Assembly (NCBI RefSeq): GCF_032878975.1
Contig: NZ_CP043875.1
Coordinates: 1,108,370-1,172,369 of the forward strand
DNA length: 64,000 nucleotides
Direction of reading: 5' to 3'
Source: Methanoplanus sp. FWC-SCC4
GTDB lineage: Archaea; Halobacteriota; Methanomicrobia; Methanomicrobiales; Methanomicrobiaceae
Shown here: positions 47,902 to 61,108 of the stretch, piece by piece
Position numbering within the stretch: position 1 is the stretch's first letter
Layout of the letters: every line of letters starts with the position of its first letter
Position numbers and translations under genes: made by a program
Notes under the pieces: model-generated
Seen by the model: the letters and a program-made list of their open reading frames with translations, nothing else
The model's database searches: none
What the model was told of the DNA's origin: nothing

Positions 47902-49038
47902 TTATGAAATCCTGAGATCCCTGAATAAAAGGGAAATTATCTCACCGGTGTGTGCATTTATAATTGCAGTAGTTGTCATCCGGGCATCTAGTCTTCGCAT
48001 CTCATTATCGTTGAATGATAAGTACCATATCAGCCTTATTGGCTCTGGGTTGTTGGAATAAACAAATTCATTTAGATCATACCAGTTGAGAGAGTTTTCA
48101 TGGTCATTTTCACTATAGTACTGTATATTCAGTTCTTCATCAGGATAGCTCTCTTTTAATTTATCTTCCAGGATTTTTTTCGCCTTGCCTAGCGGAATAG
48201 TTGGTACTGCTGAAAGGGTCATGAGATCCTTCATCAATTCAGGTTCCTTTAACTCATCCCAGTATCTGAAGACTCTGTCTTCAATAAGGTCATAATGAAC
48301 ATATATCTGATCATTCAAGCAAGGTACATCCTGATACATTTTATAGTACAGTAACACAGAAAGTCCATCGCCAATTGTTGAATCTGTATCTGCTTTATAG
48401 AGAGAAAACTCATCCATATTTTCTTCAACAAAATCGTTTCCTTTTACCTCCCTTATAAATTCCAGGGCTCTTTCTTCAGCTTCGTTTAAAGAGACAGCCC
48501 TTATCTCCTCTTTCTTAGGAGGGACTCTGGATTGAGGTCCATAAAACACTATATCTCCGGATACCGGACTAACTTTGATAGTCACAATATTATTTTGAAT
48601 ATTTTGCTCAAGTCCCTTCCATCTGATCTTTTGGGTTTCCAGGAATTTTTCGGATGTATCGTCCACGTTATAGAAAACAATTACAGGAGGGCCATTAATT
48701 CCGACATAGGAATATTTTGAGTAACGATCTTCCCAATTCCCTTCAAGTGTCGAACTGTCCACATTGGGAAATATTCTTACGATTTCATCTTTTGCCTTTT
48801 CTATCAGTTCCTGTTTTGTCTGTTCATCATATTCGGGAGAGTAATCCTTCGATGATACAACTGGTTTTGTGTTTTCTGACATAACCTGTTGAATTGTTTC
48901 ATTTGCTACTAATTCTGGCGACAAAACCTGATTGTTCTCCGGCTGGTTCGAATTAATCGTACATCCAGAAACCAGAACTGTAAAGAATAAACATAAGGCT
49001 ATCATAAAAATTCTTTTTTTTTTAAATTTTTTCTTCAT
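47902..49038 (-). CDS. Cassette B: PepSY-like lipoprotein
   Basis: About 378 residues from the ATG at 49038; a longer in-frame start overlaps the remnant gene upstream. The lipobox is VLVSGC. Related to the other cassette lipoproteins: YDEQTKQELIEKAKDEIVRI, SSTLEGNWEDRYSKYSYVG, VSLNEAEERALEFI, IPLGKAKKILEDKLKESYPD, then INAHTGEIISL. About 165 bp separate it from the ATPase gene. Confidence 0.82.
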   Translation of the reverse strand: MKKKFKKKRIFMIALCLFFTVLVSGCTINSNQPENNQVLSPELVANETIQQVMSENTKPVVSSKDYSPEYDEQTKQELIEKAKDEIVRIFPNVDSSTLEGNWEDRYSKYSYVGINGPPVIVFYNVDDTSEKFLETQKIRWKGLEQNIQNNIVTIKVSPVSGDIVFYGPQSRVPPKKEEIRAVSLNEAEERALEFIREVKGNDFVEENMDEFSLYKADTDSTIGDGLSVLLYYKMYQDVPCLNDQIYVHYDLIEDRVFRYWDELKEPELMKDLMTLSAVPTIPLGKAKKILEDKLKESYPDEELNIQYYSENDHENSLNWYDLNEFVYSNNPEPIRLIWYLSFNDNEMRRLDARMTTTAIINAHTGEIISLLFRDLRIS

Positions 49039-49042
49039 AAAA

Positions 49043-49150
49043 TCATCTTTTCCGCTTGTAATTGAAAACATAACGCCCTACAAGAGCAGCACCTGCAACA
49101 AGCATCATCAAAAGAAGGATGCCAACCTTTTTGAAATTAAATTTCTTCAT
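49043..49150 (-). pseudogene. Cassette B: truncated secreted-protein gene (signal peptide only)
   Basis: Reads MKKFNFKKVGILLLMMLVAG-AALVGR and then YVFNYKRKR before a TGA, 35 residues in all. The shared signal peptide is kept, but the cleavage site and the whole mature part are gone; its end lies 5 bp before the lipoprotein start. Its leader and promoter remain nearly intact. Most likely a deletion removed the mature part; a functional micro-peptide or a leader reading frame for coupling is possible but unproven. Confidence 0.8.
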
Positions 49151-49519
49151 TTTTTCTTAACCGATTTAAGATTTTTTCTATGCTTTTTAAAATTCTGAAG
49201 AGATTTTAAATTCGGATTTGTGTATGCCTCGTGCATATCCCTTTTTGTAATTTTTAAAATCCCCGGTTATCTCTGAGATATCTTAAGAGATTTTAAAGAC
49301 GGATGTACAAAATCCCTTCAGCATGGGGGACTTTTGTTTTTCAGTCAAAAAGAAAATATACAAGTGAATGTAAAATAAAGTAAATTTGATCTATTAATTT
49401 ACACTTACAGATATCCAAATTTTCTTTTTGAACGGTGAAGAGACTGGTACTCTCATCACTTGTCCCCGGTTAAAACTTGAAAGTGTTTATTTAAACGTCT
49501 TACGCCACAATACTTTACA
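49151..49519 (-). repeat. Conserved leader/promoter repeat, copy 2
   Basis: The second copy of the non-coding leader, now in front of the truncated gene. It is still highly similar to copies 1 and 4 except for a short loss in the CCCGG-TTATCTCTGAG stretch. Its conservation despite loss of the cargo part suggests it still drives the lipoprotein and ABC genes. Confidence 0.82.
49486..49519 (-). promoter_or_regulatory. Cassette B promoter: TATA box and shared motif
   Basis: Same layout as in cassette A: the motif (49498-49519, TGTAAAGTATTGTGGCGTAA core) is followed by TTTAAATAAA (TATA, 49486-49495). Confidence 0.75.
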
Positions 49520-56075: not shown

Positions 56076-56474
56076 TTATAATGTATATGTAGTCGTACCT
56101 GATTGTCCGCCTGCATTAAAAGTAGCCCTTACATAAGTACCTGTAGAGACAGGATTGGGATCATAGTAAGTATGCCAGCCAGTGCTAACCTGCCAGTTAT
56201 TAGAAGTACTGGCTGTCTTAGGAGATTGATAAACATCAACATTGTGGAGTTGAACTGTGATCTCCATTGAACCGTAATTTCCGTTTACTTCTTCAACAGA
56301 ACCCAAATACTGTATTCCATTAGGATAACTATAATATTCTCCGGTGGCTTTGACCTCATAAGGGTACTGATATAAGGTGCTCGAACCTGCACTAACAGGC
56401 CCTACAAGAGCAGCACCTGCCACAAGCATCATCGCAAGGAGGATGCCAATCTTTTTGAAGTTAAATTTCTTCAT
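56076..56474 (-). CDS. Cassette D: small secreted cargo-type protein
   Basis: 132 residues with the shared signal peptide and cleavage after VSA; GGGTGA precedes the ATG. The mature part is about 105 residues, beta-rich, and matches the cassette A protein only in pattern: NYGSMEITVQLHNVDVY, STGWHTYYDPNPVSTGTYV and a short terminal strand TTTYTL. No Cys. An intact member of the diversified family. Confidence 0.75.
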   Translation of the reverse strand: MKKFNFKKIGILLAMMLVAGAALVGPVSAGSSTLYQYPYEVKATGEYYSYPNGIQYLGSVEEVNGNYGSMEITVQLHNVDVYQSPKTASTSNNWQVSTGWHTYYDPNPVSTGTYVRATFNAGGQSGTTTYTL

Positions 56475-56849: not shown

Positions 56850-57493
56850 TATCCGTTACTTGAAAAAATTTTTTTGTTTTACAAATTTTTTGAAATGTAT
56901 TGTAACATTCTGGAATTTTTGTAAAACGGATAGCTCACATCCCAAATTTAAAAGATAAATCACAGGCCAAATGTATAATTCTGCCACTTATGGCTTGATC
57001 AATCTGTTTTTTTAAAAGATATCTAAAAAAAATATTTGCGGCGAAAATTAGTTTGAGCAGATATATTTTTTATTCGCGCAATTGTATTATTAGATGCCAT
57101 TTGAAAATTATAAGATAAAATTGGATTTACCCTGATTTAATTTATAGTGCTTTTCAACCGGTAAAATAAATTATCGATGTCTCATAATTTCAGACTGAAA
57201 TAAGCTATTAACATTGTCAGAGGCAATGCATAAATAACTCTGATTAAAATCCTTGGATCAGGTTCAACCAGGATTTGGATTAATAGCCTGCTCAGGTAAC
57301 AATCAGATTGAAATCAGATTAATAACCCAAAATCGACACTGGTACCTTAAAATCAGCTCCTTCTATAAATCCCTATTATCGCTGGTAGTTTCAACACGGA
57401 TACTGGTAGGATCTGCTCAATACAATTATTATAAAAAGAATTTCTGATTGAAAAATCAGGTTAAAGTTTAAATACCGGTTAATATTTGACAGA
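56850..57493. other. Degenerate inter-cassette region
   Basis: About 640 bp without a convincing gene. The first 210 bp resemble the other inter-cassette spacers (AGCTCACATCCCAAAT, AAAAATATTTGCGGCGAAAA). The rest is AT-rich; AAATCCTTGG-N11-CC-AGGATTT (57247-57276) is a bulged hairpin. It probably holds the eroded end of cassette E. Confidence 0.5.
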
Positions 57494-57956
57494 ACACCAC
57501 AAATCCATCCTCATAAACCTGACACAGGCAACGCTCATAAACAAAAAAAGGGCATGCAATAAAAAACAAGATGGACTCAAATGTGACTCTAAATTATTTT
57601 AAAGGAGTTCCATTTCTTATACCAAATTTGAATTCTCACCATATCCGGAGGAATCATAATCAAAAAAATGGTTTGCCCGAAGGATTACTAAAGCATACAA
57701 ATGATAATAGCTGTAATCATATGAGATCGTGTGAAACATATTTAGAAGATTTTTCTTATCTTTAAAATACAATTTATATTCGGCTTTAATTTCCTCATAA
57801 TTAATGGTATCAAAATAATTTGGATCCATTTCAGGTCTGGAACCCGGAAGATTATCTATAACAGATGTACCAACAGAATTCACAAAATCTGTTATCAGCA
57901 ACAGAAGTAAGAGATAATTAATCAATGAAATAACACTTGTTTTTGGAAAAGTAGAT
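57494..57956 (-). pseudogene. Cassette E: decayed permease B
   Basis: On the minus strand, STFPKTSVISLINYLLLLLL followed by GTSVIDNLPGSRPEMDPNYF matches the last third of permease B (compare SFSSTSGMSFIYSLLLLLIL and VITGPRPSINIEN in cassette B). After a gap and frame changes, the terminal FLFMSVACVRFMRMDL is still readable near 57500. The first two thirds and the stop are gone. It shows that cassette E once had the same ABC genes. Confidence 0.8.
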
Positions 57957-58018
57957 TAAAATGATTTTTTACATAAGGAACTAAATTTTGATATATCCAA
58001 GATCAAATAATATTTTGA

Positions 58019-58348
58019 TTAAGTTATTAATAGGAATATCTTTAATAACGGGAAGATAAAATCCAGACAAAATAATATCAGTAAGAGAAGGATAATCACC
58101 TCGCAAAATCTTACACCATCTTCCCATTCAGATTCCGGATTGAAAAAACCGCCCTTAAATGCCTCATATATAAAAAAAACAGAGATTACAAGAAAAACAA
58201 AACCAAACCCTATAAACGAATACTGAACATAAGAAAATCCTCCGATGAACAATGTGTGCCCGGAGTTTAGAATACTATTATTCAGACTAAGATTGATAAA
58301 AATCATGCCAGCAGCTGCGCAAGCCAGAGATGCAAACAGACTTATCAT
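58019..58348 (-). CDS. Cassette E: small 3-TM membrane protein
   Basis: 109 residues with three membrane helices (about 3-20, 40-62 and 85-107). Not recognised. It takes the place of the lipoprotein/ABC genes downstream of the cassette E secreted protein, 109 bp after its stop. A partner or immunity role is conceivable from position alone. No clear ribosome-binding site. Confidence 0.55.
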   Translation of the reverse strand: MISLFASLACAAAGMIFINLSLNNSILNSGHTLFIGGFSYVQYSFIGFGFVFLVISVFFIYEAFKGGFFNPESEWEDGVRFCEVIILLLLILFCLDFIFPLLKIFLLIT

Positions 58349-58457
58349 TTTTCTGGCAGGAATACCACATATTTTTTCTCCATAAATCTTTACCTCAACT
58401 TAGATTTTTTAATTATCACACATAGATTATAAAATAAAAAAATGATTATTTAAATTT

Positions 58458-59225
58458 CTATAGCGCAGTCAATGAATTAGTCCATGTTGATGTAAGTGAT
58501 TGACCAGCAGGAATATCTATATGCATGGCACCGTGAACCTCCTGGGGATTGCCATAGAAACCGTTCCATTCAACGGCATATTTCCCGCCATAACCAACCT
58601 GACAATCTCCTGATTTCGGTCTGACTACATCCTGATGAAGAACAAAATCTCCCCCGATACTAAACGAAGTTCCGGAATAACCTGTCGATAAGCCAATATT
58701 TACGGTTTGTTCATTGCCTGTAATCGTAGAACCCGGACTATAAGTTATCAACCGGGCATTTAAATTTGTCAGCTGAACTTTATTCCAAAAATTGGTAAGA
58801 TCAAACCATGGGTTTGGCTGAGCTGAAGTCCATTGCCAGTAATAATAATGCTCCTTTCCACTCAGGTCAACCTCATTGAATTTATACAGCAACAGTGCAT
58901 TATCAGAACTTGCAGAACCAGTACTCAAATGATCAGTCCATGCACCAACATAACTTATACCTGAGGTGCGATCAGGTTCTCCGGTTATACTTTCTAACAT
59001 TTCAATATTCTTAGAACCATATTTTTCATTCATTTCCTGTACATACATTCTGAATTCTGATTGTGTCATTTGAGGCATACTTGAATTAATTTCAATTGAA
59101 TGTTCAATTGTATTAAGCCCCTGCAAAATTTCCTGATTTGCACTAACAGGCCCTACAAGAGCAGCACCTGCAACAAGCATCATCGCAAGAAGGATGCCAA
59201 TTTTTTTGAAGCTAAATTTCTTCAT
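58458..59225 (-). CDS. Cassette E: larger secreted protein with the shared signal peptide
   Basis: 255 residues. The signal peptide MKKFSFKKIGILLAMMLVAG-AALVGPVSA is the same as in the small proteins, but the mature part of about 226 residues is unrelated to theirs. It has a helical N-terminal segment (QMTQSEFRMYVQEMNEKYGS) and a beta-rich C-terminal domain with many Trp and Gly (EHYYYWQWTSAQPNPWFD, GGKYAVEWNGFYGNPQEVHG). One Cys (GDCQVG). Family not recognised. GGGGAAG precedes the ATG. Confidence 0.75.
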   Translation of the reverse strand: MKKFSFKKIGILLAMMLVAGAALVGPVSANQEILQGLNTIEHSIEINSSMPQMTQSEFRMYVQEMNEKYGSKNIEMLESITGEPDRTSGISYVGAWTDHLSTGSASSDNALLLYKFNEVDLSGKEHYYYWQWTSAQPNPWFDLTNFWNKVQLTNLNARLITYSPGSTITGNEQTVNIGLSTGYSGTSFSIGGDFVLHQDVVRPKSGDCQVGYGGKYAVEWNGFYGNPQEVHGAMHIDIPAGQSLTSTWTNSLTAL

Positions 59226-59604
59226 TTTATCTTCCCCTACTTAAGATTTTATTCTATACTTTTTTTAAATTCTGAAGAGGTTTTAAATCCGGATTGGTGT
59301 ATCTCTGGTGCATATCCTTTTTTGTAATTTTTAAAATCCCCAGGCTTCTCAGGAGTATTTCTGAGATATCTTAAGAGAGTCCAAAGAAGATGCACAAAAT
59401 CCCTTCAGCACGGGGAGCTTTTGGTTTTCAGCCAAAAAGTAAATATATAAGTGAGTATAAAATAGAACTTATTTGATCTATTAACTTACACTTACAGATC
59501 CAAACTTTCTTTTTGAACAGTGAAGTGACTGGTACTCTCCTCACTGTTCCCCGGTTAAAACTTGAAAGTGTTTATTAAAACATCTTACGCCACAATCCTT
59601 TACA
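59226..59604 (-). repeat. Conserved leader/promoter repeat, copy 5
   Basis: The fifth and most diverged copy (for example GTATCTCTGGTGC and AAGAGAGTCCAAAG). It still keeps the order of all short inverted repeats except that GCAT in one arm is changed to AGAT. It precedes an unrelated cargo type, so leader and signal travel independently of the mature part. Confidence 0.8.
59571..59604 (-). promoter_or_regulatory. Cassette E promoter: TATA box and shared motif
   Basis: Motif (59583-59604) followed by TTTTAATAAA (59571-59580) on the minus strand. 79 bp away lies an inverted copy of the motif serving the opposite strand. Confidence 0.75.
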
Positions 59605-59683
59605 TATTCCTTTTTCCAGGCATATTTGTCTGATGTCATTTTTCTCAGATATCAATTAAATTGTTTTTTTGATTCATTTAACG

Positions 59684-59705
59684 TGTAAAGGATTGTGGCG
59701 TAAGA
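59684..59705 (+). promoter_or_regulatory. Sixth shared motif, plus strand
   Basis: TGTAAAGGATTGTGGCGTAA plus GA matches the cassette motif exactly (same as copies C and E) but points to the plus strand. Only 24 bp separate it from the ATG at 59730, so this gene should have a very short leader or none, unlike the cassettes. The sequence outside the motif is not conserved, which argues that the motif itself is under selection. Confidence 0.75.
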
Positions 59706-59729
59706 TATTTGTAATGCTAATAAAAATTC

Positions 59730-60206
59730 ATGTATATGAAAAGAATATATCTATTACTAACAATTGCCTTTGTGGCGTTGCTTATTCTGACAGGTTCTGT
59801 TAGTGCAAAGATAATTGAGACAAAATCAGGTTATGTAGTAAGATCAGGTTATGATGTGGAAAATTCAGCAGATATTTTCCCTTCAATAAACAGCATAACA
59901 CGATCCCTCTATTCAATAACGGATGGAGAGATTAATTATCATAATTATTATGTTAGCTCTGGAAAGACAAAAATAACATATGATGTCGACTGGGGAGATT
60001 CTAATAATGACTTGGGTCTTAAGATTATAACCCCTGATACAACCCTGGGATATTATCATGACTCAATTGACGGGAGAACTGATGGGAAAATTTATATCCA
60101 GATATCCAATTCCATGGGACTTCCAACAGGTACCTGGGACAGTTTTGTAATGGGATATACAGTATCAGGTACGGAGTATTATAACTTTGGAGTAAGTTCA
60201 ATATAA
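59730..60206 (+). CDS. Secreted protein under the shared motif
   Basis: 158 residues (or 156 from the second ATG at 59736). Signal peptide MYMKRIYLLLTIAFVALLIL with cleavage after VSA. The mature start KIIETKSGYVVRSGY closely matches KIIQVRNGYVVTSAY in the regulator encoded next. The C-terminal half (YDVDWGDSNNDLGLKIITPD, DSIDGRTDGKIYIQIS) looks like a PPC-type beta-sandwich as found in archaeal exported proteins. Possibly a ligand or co-sensor for the adjacent regulator; this is inference. Confidence 0.7.
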   Translation: MYMKRIYLLLTIAFVALLILTGSVSAKIIETKSGYVVRSGYDVENSADIFPSINSITRSLYSITDGEINYHNYYVSSGKTKITYDVDWGDSNNDLGLKIITPDTTLGYYHDSIDGRTDGKIYIQISNSMGLPTGTWDSFVMGYTVSGTEYYNFGVSSI

Positions 60207-60256: not shown

Positions 60257-61108
60257 ATGACTCTTTTTCCGGCTAAGATTACAGTGCTATCAACACTATT
60301 ACTTCTTTTAATACTATTGTCAGGCTTTGCAAGTGCAGAAGATAAAATAATACAGGTTCGTAACGGATATGTCGTAACATCAGCTTACGGAGAAAATCTT
60401 TCGGGAGGAGAAGAACTTAAAAGCAAACAGGTGGAATTCTCGGAACTGGGACTCCGGTCAAAATTAGAAGTAATTATTACTGAAAATATCCCCATTGCTG
60501 GTGATTTTATAATGGTTATTATCAGTTTGGCAATGACTTTTGGTCTTACATCATACTTTGGATGTAAATATATTAGCAAAAAAACTATACTCAAAAACGA
60601 AATCCGCAATGATATTTTTAAAATTATTAAAAAAAATCCGGGGATTAACTTCTCGGGGATTGTAAAAGAACTAGGAATAACGAAAACAATGGTCAAATAC
60701 CACCTTGAAAAACTTGTCTCATTTGGAATTATCAGACGATTCTCCGAAAACGGCCGTATTGGGTACTTTAAAAACAATGATACTTTTACAGTTTCTGAGA
60801 TGAAACTTTCACTTGTTCAAAAAAACCTGAAAGATAAACTAATACTTGATATTTTAACAACTCAGCCGGGAATAACAAGAAAAGAAATTTCATGCAAAAC
60901 AGATCTGTCTGGACCGGCGATTACATGGCACATGAAAAGACTGGAAAAAACAGGCTATATTGAAATTGTAAGGGATGGCCGAAATACCAGGTATTTTCTG
61001 AAACAGAATCCTGAGATTGCAAAAGCGGATGAAGAATATTCAATTTTCAAATCAGGATTATTAAATCAAACGTTTGATCAGGGGGAGATAATAAATGAAA
61101 CAAAATAA
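60257..61108 (+). CDS. Membrane-anchored double winged-helix regulator 1
   Basis: 283 residues. A signal/anchor (about 8-27), a short external segment with the GYVV motif shared with the preceding secreted protein, a second membrane helix (about 78-98), then two cytoplasmic winged helices: IFKIIKKNPGINFSGIVKEL with KTMVKYHLEKLVSFGIIRRF, and ILDILTTQPGITRKEISCKT with PAITWHMKRLEKTGYIEIVR. It looks like a one-component system that senses outside and binds DNA inside. The shared 22-bp motif near by is a candidate target. It overlaps the next gene by 14 bp. Confidence 0.82.
   Translation: MTLFPAKITVLSTLLLLLILLSGFASAEDKIIQVRNGYVVTSAYGENLSGGEELKSKQVEFSELGLRSKLEVIITENIPIAGDFIMVIISLAMTFGLTSYFGCKYISKKTILKNEIRNDIFKIIKKNPGINFSGIVKELGITKTMVKYHLEKLVSFGIIRRFSENGRIGYFKNNDTFTVSEMKLSLVQKNLKDKLILDILTTQPGITRKEISCKTDLSGPAITWHMKRLEKTGYIEIVRDGRNTRYFLKQNPEIAKADEEYSIFKSGLLNQTFDQGEIINETK

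What the first reader, a model, noticed from the sequence alone, without database searches (positions are those of the whole stretch)
57494..59225. Cassette E: new cargo, new 3-TM partner, dead permease
Under the same leader and signal, cassette E encodes a 255-residue cargo of a different fold, then a 109-residue 3-TM protein, and then the remains of permease B. It looks as if a new cargo/partner pair replaced lipoprotein and ABC genes. In an antagonism model the 3-TM protein would be the specific immunity factor.
Basis: partly seen in the sequence, partly recalled or inferred. Interest (0 to 1): 0.65.

Follow-up and report, generated by a model that had tools for sequence, protein, structure and literature searches.

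The report
Swapped secreted-protein and membrane-partner cassette
In a methanogenic archaeon, one slot of a multi-cassette locus holds a secreted protein of an undescribed family plus a small membrane protein, and next to it lie the ruins of a related secreted protein with an unrelated membrane partner, so the pair seems to have been exchanged as a unit, as rival microbes do with toxin and antidote genes; no activity has been shown.

Summary
The anatomy is confirmed. A 255-aa secreted cargo (58458-59225, -) carries the locus leader, a 109-aa three-helix membrane protein (TM3) follows (58019-58348, -), then a broken permease B (57494-57955). E2 pairs stand at the same place in two Methanogenium genomes. 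So cargo and partner appear to be exchanged together behind a constant promoter-leader block (28/29 leader residues shared with sister cassettes, while the mature part matches another genome at 178/226). Cargo E and TM3 are linked far above chance (Fisher p about 1e-6), but not obligately: 11 of 19 cargo genomes lack TM3, and 10 of 18 TM3 genomes lack cargo E. For E2 the partner is present wherever cargo is (4 of 4) and occurs without it in 9 genomes. This is the pattern expected of secreted antagonist plus immunity, the likeliest reading (about 45%). An export, assembly or surface-display partner remains nearly as good. No Pfam, NCBIfam, PDB or convincing fold match was found. The cargo family and the slot exchange look new to me.

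The parts
58458..59225 (-). cargo E: 255 aa, locus leader (residues 1-29) plus a mature domain of an undescribed family
   Evidence: no Pfam, NCBIfam or PDB-sequence match; AlphaFold model pLDDT 67, pTM 0.69, two helices then a beta-sandwich-like domain
58019..58348 (-). TM3: 109-aa membrane partner with three hydrophobic segments, 110 nt downstream of cargo E
   Evidence: no Pfam family
57494..57955 (-). remains of ABC permease B, C-terminal 45%, two in-frame stops; includes the open 102-aa stretch 57617-57925
57283..57390 (-). relic of an E2-type cargo: its last 36 codons (residues 221-255 of the Methanogenium E2 cargo)
   Evidence: 53% identity, E = 1e-3; collinear DNA
57173..57280 (-). relic of the 2-TM E2 partner: residues 32-67, one in-frame stop; about 128 nt lost between it and the cargo tail
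   Evidence: E = 2.3e-8 for the whole genome; 76% DNA identity over 91 nt to G007, E = 1e-13
59226..59560 (-). promoter and long 5' leader of cassette E, shared with four other places in the locus
   Evidence: five copies in the genome, all in this locus
59583..59604 (-). 22-bp signal TGTAAAGGATTGTGGCGTAAGA upstream of cassette E
   Evidence: six copies in 2.3 Mb at up to 3 mismatches, all in this locus
59684..59705 (+). same 22-bp signal ahead of the divergent regulator operon
59730..60206 (+). 158-aa secreted protein, first gene of the divergent operon
   Evidence: similar proteins beside the cassettes in G022, G007, G101 and Methanoculleus-like genomes
60257..61108 (+). 283-aa membrane-tethered regulator with two winged helices (Pfam HTH_24), candidate controller of the locus

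Best explanation
Cassette E is an exchangeable 'secreted cargo + cognate small membrane partner' module placed behind the constant signal-promoter-leader block of a multi-cassette locus. Shown by sequence: the leader/mature mosaic, the linkage of cargo and partner, and the decayed older pair (E2 plus unrelated 2-TM partner) in the same slot. Inferred: the divergent membrane-tethered winged-helix regulator acts on the 22-bp signal; the leader sends the cargo through Sec; the cargo acts outside the cell against related archaea; the membrane partner protects the producer, which is why cargo and partner change together and why partners outlive their cargo. The modular exchange itself I hold at about 0.85; the antagonist/immunity function at about 0.45.
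For: Leader and upstream DNA are those of the sister cassettes (28/29 residues; 87% over about 450 nt), while the mature cargo matches G016 at 178/226, where the leader is another (9/26) and no upstream DNA is shared. Cargo E and TM3 are neighbours on one strand in G000, G016, G022, G083, G406 and G502, and 4.7 kb apart in G073; Fisher p = 1.6e-6 for co-occurrence among 393 genomes. Relics of an E2 cargo and its unrelated 2-TM partner lie just downstream, at the place where E2 pairs stand in Methanogenium G007 and G013, just ahead of the next leader cassette and, in G007, beside the divergent regulator. The two partner families show no detectable relation (hhalign probability 0.2%), although their cargos are homologous (27%). 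Partners are found without cargo: G022 (TM3 intact, cargo only a tail), G009 and eight other genomes with E2 partner but no E2 cargo, five of them at the very site where G101 has both. No E2 cargo was found without its partner (4 of 4). Published parallel: Bacillus SdpC/SdpI and YitM/YitQ, homologous toxins with unrelated membrane antitoxins, some strains keeping only the immunity genes (PMC6818787).
Against: Eleven of 19 genomes with cargo E lack TM3, among them complete Methanoculleus-like genomes. Haloarchaeal relatives look like lipoproteins and two Methanogenium copies keep an N-terminal anchor, which fits a surface protein better than a diffusible toxin. No toxin domain, catalytic motif or fold match is seen. 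Cargo is better conserved than partner (pN 0.13 against 0.24). TM3-like proteins also sit behind an unrelated lipoprotein in four Methanosarcinaceae-like loci. Partner-only loci can also arise by neutral loss.
Confidence: 0.45

Rival explanations
1. Surface-protein module: the cargo is an envelope or S-layer-associated protein, and the small membrane partner helps its export, anchoring or quality control. Replacement reflects turnover of cell-surface proteins (virus or niche pressure), not antagonism.
For: Lipoprotein and N-anchored forms without partner; weak structural resemblance only to adhesin-like and carbohydrate-binding beta-sandwiches, none significant; the same leader strategy carries many unrelated secreted proteins in Methanoculleus-like genomes; TM3-like genes also follow an unrelated lipoprotein.
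Against: Homologous cargos have unrelated partners and exchange with them; partners persist without any cargo, which a dedicated export or anchoring helper has no reason to do.
Confidence: 0.33
2. Signalling module: the cargo is an extracellular ligand and the partner part of its receptor or of a relay to a winged-helix regulator.
For: TM3 lies next to ArsR-type regulators in G014, G015 and G022, a membrane-tethered winged-helix regulator stands beside cassette E, and the 22-bp signal ties regulator and cassettes into one regulon.
Against: Cassette E has no ArsR gene of its own; regulators next to immunity genes are equally expected under antagonism (SdpR/SdpI).
Confidence: 0.12
3. The cassette is decaying: cargo E and TM3 are passengers in a locus graveyard, linked by chance and shared ancestry.
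For: Permease, E2 cargo and E2 partner remains beside it; the homologous start codon of TM3 upstream is not in frame here (one search compared).
Against: Both genes are open and look to be under purifying selection against G016, and the pair recurs in three separate cargo clades.
Confidence: 0.1

Closest known systems
SdpC/SdpI (and YitM/YitQ) systems of Bacillus subtilis (PMC6818787)
   Same: Secreted protein with a small integral-membrane partner gene nearby; homologous secreted proteins with unrelated membrane partners; strains that keep only partner genes; ArsR-type regulator next to the partner in some relatives (G014, G015, G022).
   Different: No sequence match to a described toxin or immunity family; no SdpA/SdpB-like processing genes seen; cargo lacks a C-terminal hydrophobic toxin segment; activity untested.
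Polymorphic toxin systems (PMC3482391)
   Same: Constant export/leader part with exchangeable cargo and cognate partner, and remains of displaced pairs.
   Different: Here whole small proteins change behind a promoter and leader block, not C-terminal toxin domains behind a long carrier; no known toxin domain.
VARTIG modules of Thermococcales (PMC8416519)
   Same: Archaeal hypervariable loci of secreted proteins followed by small membrane proteins, function unknown, antagonism among the hypotheses.
   Different: VARTIG centres on a large Ig-domain protein; no homology was tested or seen.
Lactococcin 972-type bacteriocin loci (from memory)
   Same: Sec-secreted small beta-rich protein with ABC genes, as in the sister cassettes.
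   Different: No Pfam match of the sister cargos to that family; cassette E has no working ABC genes of its own.
ABC2_membrane_2 permeases (NosY/NatB-like)
   Same: The permease remnant is homologous to permease B of the sister cassettes, which match Pfam ABC2_membrane_2.
   Different: Broken here, so cassette E has no permease of its own.

Membership tests
Polymorphic toxin / effector-immunity modules | constant delivery part with exchangeable cargo | tested here: met
   leader and upstream DNA constant, mature parts unrelated or swapped; decayed older pair in the slot
Polymorphic toxin / effector-immunity modules | cognate partner encoded next to the cargo and changing with it | tested here: inconclusive
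   met for E2 (4 of 4) and for six E1 loci; not met for 11 of 19 genomes with cargo E
Polymorphic toxin / effector-immunity modules | cargo is toxic and partner protects | not testable with these tools
   needs experiment
SdpC/SdpI | sequence match to a described toxin or immunity family | tested here: not met
   no Pfam or NCBIfam match for the cargo family and no Pfam match for TM3
SdpC/SdpI | ArsR-type regulator adjacent to the membrane partner | tested here: inconclusive
   absent in cassette E; present in G014, G015 and G022
ABC2_membrane_2 permease (remnant) | sequence match to an intact member | tested here: met
   permease B residues 181-327, E = 2e-9, with stops: a pseudogene
Lactococcin 972-type bacteriocins | match to the family profile | tested here: not met
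   sister cargos and cargo E have no such Pfam match
VARTIG | large Ig-domain secreted protein heading the operon | tested here: not met
   no Ig-domain match above cut-off in cargo E or its family; operon headed by a 255-aa protein

The most novel reading that the evidence does not exclude
An undescribed archaeal antagonism system in which short secreted proteins and unrelated small membrane immunity proteins are exchanged as pairs in a fixed, regulator-controlled slot behind one promoter-leader block, spread over methanogens with distant cargo relatives in haloarchaea.
Probability: 0.4. Interest if true: 0.82.

Novelty: new variant of a known kind. Interest (0 to 1): 0.62.

Why it matters
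Weapons between archaea are poorly known. If right, this gives a compact, testable case: one slot, two cargo/partner generations, a defined leader and a regulon signal, with relatives in cultured methanogens (Methanogenium cariaci, Methanohalophilus euhalobius). Even if the cargo is only a surface protein, promoter-leader capture with paired partner replacement is a clear way for archaea to change secreted proteins.

Tried and rejected
Rfam on the shared 5' leader: nothing above threshold, so no known RNA element. PDB and viral fold searches with the cargo model: only TM-scores below 0.3 by query length, treated as no match. The single-domain antibody hit by sequence (E = 0.02) and the Peptidase_M24 hit (E = 0.002, below the cut-off) are taken as chance. 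A common origin of TM3 and the E2 partner was tested and not found. Broken frames of the Methanogenium cariaci E2 cargo were not counted as decay, since that draft shows repeated small frame shifts. Leader-only hits of the broad cargo profile were not counted as cargo. The long inverted repeat at 59578-59710 was first taken for a transposon end; it is two copies of the regulon signal facing each other. The paper by Makarova and others on archaeal toxins (2019) is not held and could not be checked.

Full report
What is there. The window lies in a complete 2.31-Mb archaeal genome whose nearest named relatives with this cargo are Methanomicrobiaceae and Methanogenium. After a gap the next leader cassette begins.

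The leader block. The region from about 360 nt upstream of the start to the end of the signal peptide is 87% identical in five places of the locus, and its upstream part is found nowhere else in the genome. The identity stops at the end of the leader. One of the five, at about 49077-49470, is a relic fused in front of a lipoprotein gene. A 22-bp signal stands ahead of each block and, turned round, ahead of the divergent operon with a 158-aa secreted protein and a membrane-tethered winged-helix regulator. These are the only six copies in the genome at up to three mismatches. The same signal, cassettes and regulator occur in another genus of the family, G022. A regulon is the natural reading; binding is not shown.

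A mosaic gene. Cargo E shares 28 of 29 leader residues with the sister cassette at 56076-56474. Its mature part matches G016 at 178 of 226 residues, where the leader is different (9/26) and no upstream DNA is shared. So this mature cargo has come under this leader, or the leader under it, most simply by recombination at the leader end.

Two cargo subfamilies, two partners. Profiles find the E family in 19 genomes (E1 sense) and, with a broader profile, a second subfamily E2 in G007, G013, G015 and G101. E1 loci often carry TM3. E2 loci carry a 67-73-aa protein with two membrane segments that shows no relation to TM3. In G007 and G013 the E2 pair stands just ahead of the next leader cassette (and in G007 beside the divergent regulator), the place where the window has its ruins of E2. 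The plain reading is that an E2 pair held the slot, that the E1 pair came in, and that the E2 pair decayed. How the permease B fragment came to lie between the two is not explained.

Is the pair obligate? No. Cargo E without TM3: 11 of 19 genomes (two of the 11 hold only cargo fragments). TM3 without cargo E: 10 of 18. But the two co-occur far above chance (related genomes are not independent, so the p-value is a guide only) and are then nearly always neighbours, in three separate clades of the cargo tree, where unpaired cargos are mixed in (several forks weak). For E2, all four genomes with cargo have the partner, while nine genomes have the partner alone, five of them at the same chromosomal site where G101 has both. 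In G009 the partner is whole and the cargo seems reduced to its tail (read by eye); in G022 TM3 is whole and the cargo is a tail. Partners outliving cargos is what immunity predicts. It is not proof, since neutral loss, or gain of cargo beside an older partner, also makes such loci.

What the cargo might be. No library knows it. The AlphaFold model (six sequences, pTM 0.69) has two helices followed by a beta-sandwich-like body and a badly predicted stretch at 164-202; no solved or viral structure matches convincingly. Haloarchaeal relatives look like lipoproteins. This leaves a surface protein open.

Verdict. The displaced unit seems to be an older cargo/partner pair. Antagonist plus immunity is my first choice at about 45%, a surface-protein module second at about a third. 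What is well supported is the paired exchange in a fixed slot behind a constant leader.

Noticed in passing
window 44569, 49498, 51586, 56828, 59583 (- sense) and 59684 (+ sense): 22-bp signal TGTAAAGGATTGTGGCGTAAGA, six copies in the genome, all in this locus; four copies in G022 and one in G017. Likely operator of a cassette regulon.
   Followed up: partly
window 49077-49473: A promoter-leader block whose cargo is lost; the leader runs into the lipoprotein gene 47902-49071.
   Followed up: partly
window 59515-59549: Inverted repeat GAACAGTGA...TCACTGTTC inside the leader block, upstream of the TATA-like stretch.
   Followed up: no
window 58349-58400: TM3 relatives in G014-G016 begin about 12 residues further upstream; in the window the matching codons have no in-frame ATG.
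   Followed up: no
L032, L033, L029: Recurrent module: TM3, ArsR-type regulator, membrane coiled-coil protein and a 68-aa protein, and in L032/L033 a 249-aa multi-TM protein with the motif FIINWETWFFG; the last family also follows cargo in L026 and a leader protein in L139.
   Followed up: partly
L100-L103: Short TM3-like proteins behind a 364-aa lipoprotein in three of four loci of one further family (all but L102), and directly followed by a 174-aa membrane protein in three.
   Followed up: no
L071-L079: Methanoculleus-like genomes also have a repeated leader with different secreted proteins, next to ABC2 permeases and M28 peptidases.
   Followed up: partly
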